In this document: positions 31,043 to 49,769 of the stretch, piece by piece | Layout: every line of letters begins with the position of its first letter | How positions within the stretch are numbered: position 1 is the first letter of the stretch | NCBI RefSeq assembly: GCF_000003815.2 | Contig: NC_049986.1 | Location: 22,365,464 to 22,429,463, forward strand | From: Branchiostoma floridae | Taxonomy: Eukaryota; Chordata; Leptocardii; Amphioxiformes; Branchiostomatidae | Reading direction: 5' to 3' | DNA length: 64,000 bases | Notes under the pieces: model-generated | Told to the model about the DNA's origin: nothing | Seen by the model: only the letters and a program-made list of their open reading frames with translations | The model's database searches: none | Translations under genes and position numbers: made by a program

Positions 31043-34000
31043 CTAACGAAATGTAAGGTTTTGAAGCATATTAAGAACGCCACGTTGTACTTGCGAAATG
31101 GATTCGTCTTCTTGCATCTGTAATGCCTGCTCCAAATAATATTGGGACTTCCTAACGTCACCCAAGAAGCGACACAGTATTGACAAGTTTATAAGTGTGT
31201 TGACAATCCGAGTATGCGGTGTATGAGAACCATAGATACTTTTAGACATATCCAATGACTGCTCGAGGTCACTGAGTGCTTGTCTGTAATGTCCCAGCCC
31301 CATTCTAGTGGCGCCCAGGTTGGTGAGGATGTTGGCAATTTCAGCATGTACTGAACCAAACATTCTTTTGCACATCTGGAGTGCCTCTGTAAAGTATTTC
31401 AATGCTTTTTTGTGGTCACCCAGCTTACCCCAACCTGTTCCTAGGTTATTCAAAGACAAAACGATGGCTAAATGAGAAGTGTTTGAACCATAAACCTTTC
31501 TGTAAATTTGTAAAGCCTCTTCGTAGCAACTGATCGCTTCTCTAGTTTCCCCAGACTTCTCCCAGATGGACCCAAGGTTGTTAAGAGCACCAGCAGTGGC
31601 ATCGTGCTCGTTACCAGAGAGTCTTCTGGTCATCTCCAATCCTGGTTGCGCATACACAGCGGCCTGCTTTGGATCCAGGTAATTCCACGATGCTCCCAGG
31701 TTGCAGAGGGCTGATGCAACCATAGGATGTGTCTCGCCATAGACAGCCCTGTACATGTTCAGTGCCAGTTCTTTATAGCGAATAGCCTTTTGTGGATTCC
31801 CTAAGTAATGCCAGGTGGTTCCCAGGGCGGCGTAAGAGACAGCAATATCAGCATGAGCTGAGTTCTGGCCATAGACTGTGTTCCTCATGCGCAGTGCTTG
31901 TTCATTGTAACCAATGGCTTTCTGATAATCACCTTTGTCACGCCAAACTAAACCTATGTTGTGAAGTGACGTGGCAACGTTAGGATGATTTGTGCCATAG
32001 ACCCTCTTGCTCATCTCAAATGTCTTTTGAAAATAGTCCAGGGCTTGCCTGTGGTCTCCAAGCTTTTGAAAAGCCAATCCTATGGAGCTCAATGCTATGG
32101 CAATGCCATTGGTGGCTGTATTCTGGTCATTAACGTTCCTGTACCTGCGTAGTGCGTTCTTAAAGTGGTCGATGGCTTCGTCGTATTGACCCAAGTCATG
32201 CAAGGAAGATCCACGTTGAATTAGAGACATTGCAACGTGTGAATCCTCAGTACTAAGCCGAATCGTCCGGTTGAAAAAGTCAAGAGCTTTTTGATGATCT
32301 CCCAGCTGTTGCCAAGCTGACCCTAATCTGGGCAGTAGCACAGCTGTTGTTGCAACATCCGTACTTTGGCGTAAAGCCTTATCCCAACATTCTATTGCTT
32401 CCTTATAATAGCCTAATGTATGGTACATCTCCCCTTTTACTAATGGGGAGTTTTCAAACAACTTGGTGCCTTTCTGCATCTTTCCAACCTGACATTCTTC
32501 GTTTGATAGGGTCTTCTTCAAAGGAATCGCCGTGAAGTAGTATCTGAAAAGCTGATTGAAATCAGAAATGTAGAACACTTTCTGCAATGCGTTCGTTTTG
32601 TCTTGTAGTGCTATCATCGAGGACAAGGCTGAGAGGTTTTCCTTCTGGCCTCCATTTGCGATGTAGGTTCTCAGTCTGAGTTCTGCTGAGATGCTGACCA
32701 GCACTTTCAGATGATGTGCGTTTTCTGCACTGACAACGTTGCTGTCTTTCATGTTTTCAATCGTGTCCCAGACAGTTGTCGGTAAGATATTTGAACTGAG
32801 TGCCAAACAGTCCACCGCAACAGACGGGAATCGGTAGATTTGTTTCTTCACATCGAAAAGAACAGCAGTCGGTCTCTGTTCTTCGCCGTTTGCCAGATTC
32901 TCATATATGGTCTCTTTCGCCATTTGTTGAGACAGTTCCCCACCTCGGGCGTTCAGTGTTTCAGCAACCATGTTGGTAAAGTCATCGACTAAACTTTGTT
33001 CCCCTGTAATCAAACAAGCATTCCGCAAAACACTGGCGAGATGATACCCTTCCTTCAAGTACACTGAGATATCTCTTTCTAAGATTACCGATATGTTTTT
33101 TGGTGTGCAAATGAGCTCACTGGATTGTGCAGCCGAAGTTCCCTGCCTGCCCAGTGGAGTCTTGCTTGCTTTTGGCATGGAGCCGTCAAAGGCAAACCCA
33201 CGTGGTGTAACAGAGTCGTAGTACCAGTTGTCCAGGGGGTCCGTTGAATAGAAATCATTCAGACTTGTTATCCCCATGGCTGGGAGGATGGTTTCTCCTA
33301 GGTTGACCACCTTGAGGTGCAGGTAGTGAGTCAGTCGACGGAAATACGCGACATTTGCTTCCTTTTCCTCCTCTACCAAGATGGCGAACTCCAGGTCTGA
33401 GTATGGAGTTACCAGTCCTGTGGCCTGTGAACCCAAACCTATCAGGGCATACTTACAGGGAGGGGGACCCATCACTACAATACACTCATTTACTAGCTGC
33501 TTGATGAACTCTTTTCTGTCCTCAGCAATCTTCTCAAACAACTGTTGGACAGCATCGGCTCGCTTGGCTTCTATCTCCCTTGCTAACTCACTTTCCTCGT
33601 CATGTATATAGGGGTTCAGCTCTTTGTCTATGGCATCCATTTTTTGTTTGATTTGGCCGCGAATTTCTTGCAAATGGTTCTTATGCCTTACTGTGGCGTT
33701 TCCATCCCCTTCCTTATCTATCTTCAAGACATGTTTAAGAAACAAAACTTCAGTATCTCTAATGTTGTCTTCAATCGCCTTGTTAAAGACCTTTGACCTG
33801 GCTACTGCTGCCTGGTACAGCGCTGCCGCCTTGACAAAGTCTCCCCCGTCTCCTGTCTGACAGTCTCGCCTGCAGTAGACATCGCCCAACTTGTGCAGGG
33901 GTGAGACTTCGTTTTCATACTGTTGAGTTGTAGGGTCTGTAGGAAAGAATGCATAGTTTTTTTTTTTTTAATATTGCATCTGAATATATTCAGATGTGTA

Positions 34001-47100: not shown

Positions 47101-49769
47101 CATGAAGCCGTCAAATGCAAACCCACGGGGTGTAACAGAGTCGTAGAACCAGTTGTCTAGTGGGTCGTCTGAGTAGAAGTTATTCAGACTTTTAATCCCC
47201 AAGGTTGGGAGGATGGTTTCTCCCAGGTTGACCACCTTGAGGTGCAGATAGTGAGTCAGTCGACGGAAATACGCGACATTTGCTTCATTTTCCTTCTCTA
47301 CCAAAATGGCAAACTCCAGATCTGAGTATGGAGTTACCAGTCCTGTGGCCTGTGAACCCAAACCTATCAGGGCATACTTACAGGGAGGGGGACCCATCAC
47401 CACGATACACTCATCTACTAGCTGCCTAATAAATTTCTTTCTTTCTTCTGTAATTTTCTCAAACAACTTTTTGACAGCGTCAGCTCGCTTGGTCTCTATC
47501 TGCCTAATTAAAGGGTTCTCCTCATCAGTGACGTCTTCTTGACCTCCAAAATTCAAAACTTTCTCAAAGTACTCATCAACAGCGTCAGCTCGATTTTTTG
47601 CTATGTCCCTAGTAGCAAAGTGACTTTTATGATTTGCGTAGGGGTTCAGCTCTTTGTCAATGGTTTCCATTTCTTGTTTGATTTGATTCCGTAATTCATT
47701 GAGATGACCTATGTTTTCATGACTATTACTTTTGCAAACACTATCACAACTGCCCAAGACATACTTTAAGAATAATGCTTCAGATGCTTGAATTGCCTTT
47801 TGAAGATTGCAATTCAATTCCTCATCCCCTGACCTGGCTACTGCTGCCTGGTACAGCGCCGCCGCCTTGACAAAGTCTCCCCCGTCTCCTGTTTGACAGC
47901 CTCGCTTGCAGTACACATTGCCCAACATTTGCAGTGGCGAAGCCTCTCTTTCGAATTGTAGACGCGTAGGATCTGTAGGAACGATATTTACATGTCCAAA
48001 TGCTAATATTATGAAAGCCGACACTAAAAGGTATTTCATATCTCAGCTGGGTAAAATGTTACTTTGTCAAGCCTATCTCCTTGTAGACATCGCGGTGAAA
48101 ACGCATTTCCTTCTTTCCAATGCTATTGTCCTTTGTTGTATTAGGATTTTTTTACTGTAAACAATCCACATGTACTATATATATATGTTACCAACTTTTG
48201 CCGTACCTCTGACATGTACAAGCCTGAGTGCTGCTGCAAAGTCCTGCTCCGCTGAGTCATGGTCTCCCATCTGTATAGCCTCCTCACCTTTCTGTAGGTG
48301 TTCTTTGTACTGCCTGAAAATGGTTTGCAGTGTTTTACTTTTAGAAGTCAATGAAACATTTCTATTCATTCATTCATTCATTCAATCATTCATTTTTTCG
48401 TATTTTGTTCGTTAATTCATTATTTTTATTGGGGCAATAAATGGCTTGCAATATGGGGCTCTTTTCTCTGGAGTATTGCAATCATAATTGTTACGAAAGT
48501 TTAGTCACGAAGACGTCGATGTGGGTTGCAAGGACCACCTTACATGTGCACACCGATCTTAACCTCAGTTAGATACACACAGATTACCTCGCAACTGAAT
48601 GTTACTGACCTGGCTGTTTCCTCGGTATAAACGGCAACGCCTTGACGTACAGGCGGCAGCCTATAGCTTGTCTTGCTGGCCTTTGACGTCATCTGGAAAT
48701 TACCAGGATGTTTTTGCGCTCTCAGTATAATAGCTCTGATAGTAGTAATATTGGTGGTATTGACATAAAGGCATGTATACAATCATTAGCATTGTGCAAA
48801 TATCAGAGTTCAAAAGGCTCCCCCCGTTGCTATATACGCGAGCTGGATAAAAAGTCCCGTTGGTACACAATTTTATAAGGGCGGCATATCTCATAGCAAC
48901 TTGTCCTTGCATAAAACACCACCACATATACAAGCGATGTGTGTAACAGGTCCTCTATGTGATATTATCAGTTGGTCCTGGTACCTAGGCCTGACCATGA
49001 TAAAAGTGAAGCAGTTTCCAATGCGCCGTTAGTTATTCTGTTTTTTTTAAACACTTACCCGTCTTGTAACTGCCTGCATGTCTCTCCTGACCTTTGCTGC
49101 GTGCAGTAAGCGATGTGTGAGGACGGTTTTCCCATGTGGATCGCCACATCGCTCCAGGGCTGTGCTGTACAGGGCTGTAGCCTTGGTCAAGTGTCTGGGC
49201 TTTTTTAAGTCTCTTCCTCTCTTAAGGTTCACGTCTCCGAGACTTTTCATAGCCTCTACTTCTAACAGGTTGTTCCTTTCCGTTATTCCTTCTACAAGGA
49301 TCTCTGTGTAGCCTTCTAAGATGGAGTCCATATGACCGCCTTTAGCCCATGTCTTATCAAAGTCTTGAAAGATCTCTGAAGTCCTTGCAACAGTAGGGAC
49401 GACTGTGTCGCCATCTGAGCCAGCTATGTGTGTTTTCTGCCTGAGTTTCTCGGCGAGTTTGACCCTATGTACGAGAGACTCCCCTTCTCCCGGATCCTCA
49501 CACCGGAGCAGTGCGGCCCTGTACAGGTTCAGGCCCCGCTCAAAGTTCCGCGAAGCTTCGGTCTTGTGAAGTCTTCCTTTCTCCACGTTCAAGTCTCCCA
49601 GGCTCTTCAGTACCTCCACTTCCTGTAGCCTGTCCATATCAGACATGGCGGTCAGAAGGGCGCGGCCGTACCCCGTCTCGGCCAGGTCATACATGTTCGC
49701 CGTAACAAACCTCCGGCATCGCACGTCTATAGGGAGAAGTGTGCCCGCAACACGCAGCATGTTCGACAT
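44170..49769 (-). CDS. Gene G: longest DUF294/GlnD-type nucleotidyltransferase-TPR protein
   Basis: Exons, right to left: 49769-49059, 48692-48610, 48313-48207 and 47972-44170. They sum to 4704 nt, or 1567 aa plus stop, all in phase. The start is MSNMLRVAG. Residues 1-237 form the helical repeat region and short linker exons follow. The NTase core has S507, D518 and E520 in GLGSQATG...SDLEF, then a helical middle, then about 16 TPR units (46.36-44.19 kb), the longest array in the cluster. Compared with E it carries an extra segment of about 40 residues before the NTase, which duplicates the RADAV...FEK helix. An in-frame ATG at 48039, inside the preceding intron, opens a hydrophobic stretch that looks like a signal peptide (see finding); I prefer the spliced start by comparison with E and F. 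A poly(A) signal lies at 44066-44071. Confidence 0.87.
44190..46360 (-). repeat. Gene G TPR array, about sixteen units
   Basis: Units of 42-45 residues from [14 protein letters not shown] to [14 protein letters not shown]. Units are more diverged from each other than in F. No introns interrupt the array. Confidence 0.85.
48366..48394. repeat. ATTC tetranucleotide repeat
   Basis: ATTCATTCATTCATTC with one interruption, in a gene G intron just upstream of linker exon 48207-48313. Confidence 0.8.

What the first reader, a model, noticed from the sequence alone, without database searches (positions are those of the whole stretch)
31043..49769. Animal cluster of DUF294/GlnD-type nucleotidyltransferases fused to long TPR arrays
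E, F and G join a helical repeat N-terminus, a nucleotidyltransferase with intact GS-x(10)-D-x-E, a DUF294-like helical middle and 9-16 TPRs. DUF294/GlnD enzymes are known mainly from bacteria, where GlnD modifies PII proteins. Tandem copies, decayed copies and variable arrays are the pattern of a sensor family under fast evolution. A nucleotide-signalling or defence enzyme whose TPRs choose the trigger is a reasonable inference, not shown.
Basis: partly seen in the sequence, partly recalled or inferred. Interest (0 to 1): 0.82.

Follow-up and report, generated by a model that had tools for sequence, protein, structure and literature searches.

The report
Lancelet protein-tagging enzyme family with TPRs
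This stretch of a lancelet-like genome holds members of a very large family of probable protein-modifying enzymes carrying long recognition arms, whose closest relatives found here belong to bacterial groups that live inside other cells, hinting at an exchange of the same tool between hosts and their microbes.

Summary
Three minus-strand genes (E, F, G) each join N-terminal TPR-like repeats, a DUF294 nucleotidyltransferase (NTase) over Pfam's cut-off, a DUF294_C-like helical domain and TPRs: F 9, E 11, G 16-17. G splices into a clean 1538-aa frame. F carries an in-frame stop. A fourth copy is a TPR array with an NTase scrap.

The genome has 257 copies of the catalytic-motif code, 0 of the reversed control. 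Of 43 cores (3 window, 40 fetched) 42 keep all three putative metal acids.

The nearest relatives found, with the same architecture, are in Parachlamydiaceae and Rickettsiales; a Neochlamydia relative reads F-box-DUF294-TPR. Lancelet copies form one clade beside some Rickettsiales copies. Transfer direction, substrate and immune role are not shown.

The parts
49059..49769 (-). gene G exon 1, N-terminal TPR-like helical repeats, 237 codons
   Evidence: ATG 49769, donor gtaagt; joins in frame to exons 2-3; TPR_12 under cut-off
48207..48309 (-). gene G exon 2, one TPR-like unit ([16 protein letters not shown]...)
   Evidence: cag|TAC...AGAG|gtacgg, phase fits; similar stretches in E and F
44170..47972 (-). 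gene G exon 3: end of N-terminal repeats, NTase, helical domain, 16-17 TPRs, stop
47035..47460 (-). gene G NTase domain (DUF294; GS-x(10)-D-x-E and later FDG); limits approximate
   Evidence: PF03445 28.5 bits; core model residues about 171-312
47309..47334 (-). gene G catalytic motif code TPYSDLEFA
   Evidence: pattern match
46390..47034 (-). gene G DUF294_C-like helical domain; limits approximate
   Evidence: profile-profile match to DUF294 proteins; aligned with DrrA/GlnE
35361..36050 (-). gene E exon 1 (start and donor inferred)
   Evidence: ATG 36050 and donor-like site at 35360; 89.2% DNA identity to G exon-1 frame
34228..34330 (-). gene E exon 2
   Evidence: tblastn 71% to G exon 2; splice sites
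31043..33936 (-). gene E exon 3: NTase, helical domain, 11 TPRs
   Evidence: PF03445 28.3 bits
33384..33409 (-). gene E catalytic motif code
42328..43140 (-). gene F exon 1 open frame
   Evidence: 88.9% DNA identity to E exon-1 frame
41284..41385 (-). gene F exon 2-like TPR unit
   Evidence: tblastn 56% to G exon 2; splice acceptor not clear
37002..39747 (-). gene F exon 3: NTase, helical domain, 9 TPRs; in-frame stop at 39687-39689
   Evidence: PF03445 25.8 bits; stop seen; exon start inferred
39193..39218 (-). gene F catalytic motif code
27829..29055 (-). decayed copy: TPR array ORF with no NTase frame
   Evidence: TPR families, no DUF294 in the 25 best Pfam rows
28941..29027 (-). 29-residue NTase scrap (79% to G core 92-120) at the head of the decayed copy
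   Evidence: tblastn E 6e-9

Best explanation
E, F and G are members of a very large lancelet family of protein nucleotidyltransferases, most likely AMPylases (or other NMPylases) of the DUF294 / DrrA / GlnE branch of the pol-beta superfamily. The NTase plus DUF294_C-like helical bundle forms the catalytic module; Mg2+ is held by D and E of GS-x(10)-D-x-E and probably by D of the later FDG motif. The C-terminal KLC/NPHP3-like TPR superhelix, whose length and sequence differ from copy to copy, binds the protein that is modified or that triggers modification; the N-terminal repeats probably assemble or restrain the enzyme. Copies arise by tandem duplication and some decay. The same family is expanded in some chlamydiae and Rickettsiales, so it has probably crossed between eukaryotes and intracellular bacteria, in a direction not known. 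Shown here: homology, predicted fold, catalytic conservation, motif copy number, purifying selection, bacterial relatives. Inferred: AMP as donor group, protein as acceptor, metal site, TPRs as selector, host-microbe role.
Confidence: 0.62

Rival explanations
1. The enzymes make a nucleotide second messenger on sensing a ligand through the TPRs, like cGAS-like receptors, some of which carry TPRs.
For: Same pol-beta superfamily; large animal expansion with sensor-like repeats; cGLRs with TPR modules exist (PMC9980059, passages).
Confidence: 0.15
2. The NTase no longer catalyses; the proteins are TPR scaffolds or decoys that mimic, or are mimicked by, bacterial effectors.
For: F carries an in-frame stop, core L011 has lost E and FDG, and the decayed copy keeps only TPRs and a scrap.
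Against: 42 of 43 cores keep all three acids and NTase is the most constrained region, dN 0.04-0.14 against 0.26-0.58 in TPRs over 31 pairs.
Confidence: 0.12
3. A housekeeping regulator without immune or symbiont role, for example of traffic or of kinesin cargo binding, expanded by neutral tandem duplication. (Compatible with the AMPylase mechanism; odds overlap with the best explanation.)
For: TPRs are KLC/NPHP3-like; DrrA's target is a Rab GTPase; no expression evidence for immunity; dN/dS below 1 in TPRs.
Against: Hundreds of motif copies, arrays of 1-20 units, and long-match relatives that, in the prokaryotes searched, lie in chlamydial and Rickettsiales groups (their intracellular life is recalled) fit conflict better.
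Confidence: 0.3
4. Assembly contamination by bacterial DNA.
For: Closest relatives found are bacterial.
Against: Copies lie on many chromosome-scale contigs, with spliced exons and introns inside the NTase in L002 and L006; lancelet copies form one clade, support 100/99.
Confidence: 0.01

Closest known systems
Neochlamydia NEX2 family (Domman et al. 2014, PMC4209131)
   Same: DUF294 in the middle and TPR array at the C-terminus; large lineage-specific family (50 proteins; section read). The first 950 aa of a Neochlamydia sp. S13 plasmid protein give F-box-like and DUF294 over cut-off, SidM_N and DUF294_C under cut-off, then TPRs; 37.7% identity over 315 aa to lancelet paralogue L009. That this protein is a NEX2 member is my inference.
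   Different: Bacterial; most members carry an N-terminal F-box, ten an OTU domain. No F-box among the Pfam rows shown for E, F, G big exons (25 best) or for G exon 1.
DrrA/SidM N-terminal AMPylase domain (PF20879)
   Different: Sequence score under the family's cut-off; E for the second D; TPR array instead of DrrA's other domains, which were not looked for one by one.
GlnE (glutamine synthetase adenylyltransferase)
   Different: PF03710 GlnE far under cut-off: only L028, 11.5 bits against 24, among seven cores; two catalytic halves in GlnE, one here.
GlnD and DUF294-CBS proteins
   Same: PF03445 NTase plus DUF294_C-type helical domain.
   Different: GlnD's HD and ACT and the CBS domains do not appear in the Pfam tables; TPR arrays instead. 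In a sample of 398 Pseudomonadota, matches outside the anchor genome cover under 100 profile positions, all but one.
TPR-CHAT families of corals and Protochlamydia PEX2
   Same: Animal TPR-plus-enzyme expansion paralleled by a chlamydial one (PMC12314368 passages).
   Different: CHAT domain, no NTase; a parallel only.

Membership tests
DUF294 (PF03445) | profile score over curated cut-off (21 bits) | tested here: met
   E 28.3, F 25.8, G 28.5
DUF294 (PF03445) | adjoining DUF294_C substrate-binding helical domain | tested here: inconclusive
   PF10335 under cut-off singly (best 22.1 vs 22.5); profile-profile 98.2%, E 5e-14 over both domains
DrrA/SidM AMPylase | SidM_N PF20879 over cut-off | tested here: not met
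   best 25.9 bits against 27
DrrA/SidM AMPylase | fold of NTase plus helical domain | tested here: met
DrrA/SidM AMPylase | G-x11-[DE]-x-[DE] metal motif | tested here: met
   D 43/43, E 42/43 cores; consensus from PMC8097203 passages
DrrA/SidM AMPylase | transfers AMP to a protein | not testable with these tools
   needs enzyme assay
GlnD uridylyltransferase | HD plus ACT domains, GlnD_UR_UTase | tested here: not met
   none in the Pfam tables of E, F, G (25 best rows) or of seven cores; NCBIfam GlnD models far under cut-off or absent for three cores
NEX2 | DUF294 mid-protein and C-terminal TPRs | tested here: met
NEX2 | N-terminal F-box (most, not all, NEX2 members) | tested here: not met
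   none shown; present in the Neochlamydia relative
cGAS-like receptors / CD-NTases | Mab-21, OAS or SMODS sequence family | tested here: not met
   no such match up to E 1 in seven cores
cGAS-like receptors / CD-NTases | cGAS/OAS fold | tested here: inconclusive
   not among the 50 rows shown; absence there does not exclude

The most novel reading that the evidence does not exclude
A chordate carries more than two hundred DrrA/GlnE-type protein AMPylases, a class that the review passages read present as bacterial, as a repertoire in which TPR arrays choose which protein is tagged. The same genes are expanded in chlamydiae and Rickettsiales, so one toolkit has been exchanged between hosts and intracellular bacteria and is used on both sides, possibly linked to ubiquitin (F-box or OTU in chlamydiae, UIM-like motifs in one lancelet and one Rickettsiaceae member).
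Probability: 0.3. Interest if true: 0.87.

Novelty: new variant of a known kind. Interest (0 to 1): 0.7.

Why it matters
If right, it would be the first animal family of DrrA/GlnE-type protein nucleotidyltransferases that I know of, at a scale otherwise seen for immune receptor families, with its closest relatives found in groups of intracellular bacteria. It makes a concrete question testable: does an animal use AMPylation as a variable recognition-and-tagging system, and did hosts take it from, or lose it to, their symbionts? In the paper library 15 papers hold the word DUF294; by titles and abstract openings none is about animal DUF294 proteins.

Tried and rejected
Viral origin: one scan of viral contigs with A2 gave 66 pattern stretches and no relative; phage records gave no match to the L009 core. 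Synonymous constraint at the motif: codon use at the NTase is not unusually fixed (mean commonest-codon share 0.59-0.69 per 20 residues in 0-160), so the lower synonymous divergence there than in the helical domain (88 of 91 and 157 of 171 pairs) fits partial gene conversion, but counts near saturation make this only suggestive. Exon-1 weak hits to BsuBI_PstI_RE are under cut-off in all three and judged chance. PADLOC: PDC-M70A and PDC-S09 hits to two of three cores (best E 3.2e-6, L009), none to G; read as shared NTase fold. The first genome-contig scan with G alone found nothing; the second with A2 found 7 loci from 47 stretches. Tree: GAM_G004a, CHL_G073 and LAN_L011 were dropped, lancelet rows thinned from 43 to 20, and loci L054, L061, L068, L071, L090 not used; two of seven Rickettsiales/alphaproteobacterial rows (G662, G654) fall outside the lancelet-Rickettsiales fork, unresolved. 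The fuller tree also keeps 43 lancelet rows together (96/90). Both roots are midpoints. The search of the order of G004 held that one genome only. Papers: one search was badly chosen and told nothing. No cGAS/OAS entry appeared among the 50 rows. A plain Foldseek pdb search was not run. The organism was not told to me: 'lancelet' follows the finding and fits 513 Mb in 431 contigs with 17 contigs of 17-35 Mb seen, as recalled for Branchiostoma floridae; not tested.
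Full report
What is there. The window lies at C8:22365464-22429463 of a 513-Mb, 431-contig genome. On the minus strand three large exons (E, F, G) each follow an upstream open frame of 259-275 codons. G splices cleanly: 711 + 103 + 3803 bases, consensus-like splice sites, one open frame of 1538 aa. E has the same layout (its exon-1 start and donor are inferred, its full join was not translated). F's third exon holds an in-frame stop at 39687-39689 before the NTase, so as assembled F is damaged or starts later. A fourth copy survives as a TPR-only frame with a 29-residue NTase scrap.

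Domains. PF03445 DUF294 passes its cut-off in E, F and G. The motif is [17 protein letters not shown], followed some 70 residues later by F-D-G. The helical middle is DUF294_C-like: ten DUF294 proteins from Pseudomonadota and the lancelet profile align over 251 columns, 98.2% probability, E 5e-14. The C-terminal TPRs are of the TPR_12/NPHP3/kinesin-light-chain kind.

Scale. Of 262 candidates for PF03445 in this genome 150 were scored and 119 matched at E<=0.001, all over the cut-off; by my reading of that table 8 of the 119 lie in open frames shorter than 400 aa, two of them (L002, L006) because of introns. An exact degenerate pattern for about TP[YF]SD-[LFIMV]-EFA occurs 257 times (134 + 123), and 0 times read backwards (the first 100 places were listed). 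Copies lie in tandem, for example 18 between 0.96 and 1.18 Mb of C7. TPR units after the core range from 1 to 20 in 21 long frames. Most fetched copies have NTase and helical domain in one frame. Some copies may be uncollapsed haplotypes or broken; this was not tested for the 257.

Constraint. In 43 aligned cores (3 window, 40 fetched from the better Pfam hits, so not a random sample) G, S, T, P and the first D are kept in 43; the E and the later D in 42, the exception for both being L011. Over 31 paralogue pairs NTase dN is 0.04-0.14 and dN/dS 0.05-0.28; TPR dN is 0.26-0.58 and dN/dS 0.19-0.51 in the 30 pairs where it could be computed. Many dS values exceed 1, so these are rough; nowhere is there a whole-region sign of positive selection. 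This speaks for a working enzyme with more freely changing arrays.

Relatives. A scan of the genome-contig collection found 7 loci: three in one Parachlamydiaceae MAG, two in one Rickettsiaceae MAG, one alphaproteobacterial and one gammaproteobacterial MAG. Four long proteins were scanned with Pfam: all have DUF294 over cut-off, three have strong TPR arrays, the gammaproteobacterial one only weak TPR hits; TPRs were not seen in L052 and L053, whose frames end early. By eye the alignment also carries on into the N-terminal repeats. In the phylum of the Parachlamydiaceae MAG 34 of 232 genomes match, 10 of them with one match spanning 300 or more of 402 positions; in the order of the Rickettsiaceae MAG 8 of 174, 4 of them so. 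In a sample of 398 genomes of the latter's phylum 62 match, but apart from the anchor genome the matches cover under 100 positions, all but one. Other phyla were not searched. A Neochlamydia sp. S13 plasmid has 11 places, and the one examined reads F-box-like, DUF294, (SidM_N, DUF294_C under cut-off), TPR. This fits the NEX2 family of Domman et al. 2014 (PMC4209131; passages and section 8 read), 50 proteins thought to act in host cells.

Tree. Twenty lancelet rows form one clade (100/99); five of seven Rickettsiales/alphaproteobacterial rows join it (92/96), the other two and all 11 chlamydial rows fall outside. With one animal genome and a midpoint root, the direction of transfer is open, and shared descent through unsampled eukaryotes is possible.

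How it probably works. I commit to protein NMPylation, most likely AMPylation, with the TPR superhelix choosing partner or trigger (0.62). The second-messenger reading (0.15) has less support: no cGLR sequence family is hit. An immune or symbiont-facing role is plausible from copy number, array variation and the bacterial distribution, but no expression or functional data were available. A weak lead to ubiquitin exists: UIM-like motifs, under cut-off, in lancelet copy L013 (16.2 bits) and in the Rickettsiaceae protein L050 (19.5 bits; cut-off 21), beside the F-box and OTU of NEX2.

Novelty. The architecture is known from Neochlamydia, so this is not a new kind. Its presence as a family of hundreds in an animal, and its AMPylase-like fold, I saw in none of the ten search listings, nor in the passages read of seven papers (PMC3710099, PMC4209131 with one section, PMC8195603, PMC12314368, PMC8097203, PMC9980059, PMC7159879). 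Most subscription papers and preprints are not in that library, and automated annotations probably list such proteins.

Noticed in passing
window 25760-27013 (+): Open frame with a full-length IgGFc_binding domain (PF17517, E 5.9e-78) next to the family cluster.
   Followed up: partly
L013:1870-2589, aa 143-156; L050 C-terminus: UIM-like ubiquitin-binding motifs (16.2 and 19.5 bits, cut-off 21) in one lancelet and one Rickettsiaceae family member.
   Followed up: partly
G662, G755, G654; G001: Genomes of the Rickettsiaceae and Parachlamydiaceae groups carry several family members each, some in open frames of thousands of residues (up to 11,442 aa).
   Followed up: no
L051:4216-9228, aa 179-261: A chlamydial family member has a weak methyltransferase-like N-terminal match (PF13649 21.2 bits, under cut-off 27).
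   Followed up: no
L002, L006: Two lancelet members have introns inside the NTase; these could be the older, less duplicated form.
   Followed up: partly
E, F, G exon-1 frames: The exon-1 frames are 88-89% identical in DNA among all three genes although F's core is far more distant from E and G, as if exon 1 were homogenised in the cluster.
   Followed up: partly
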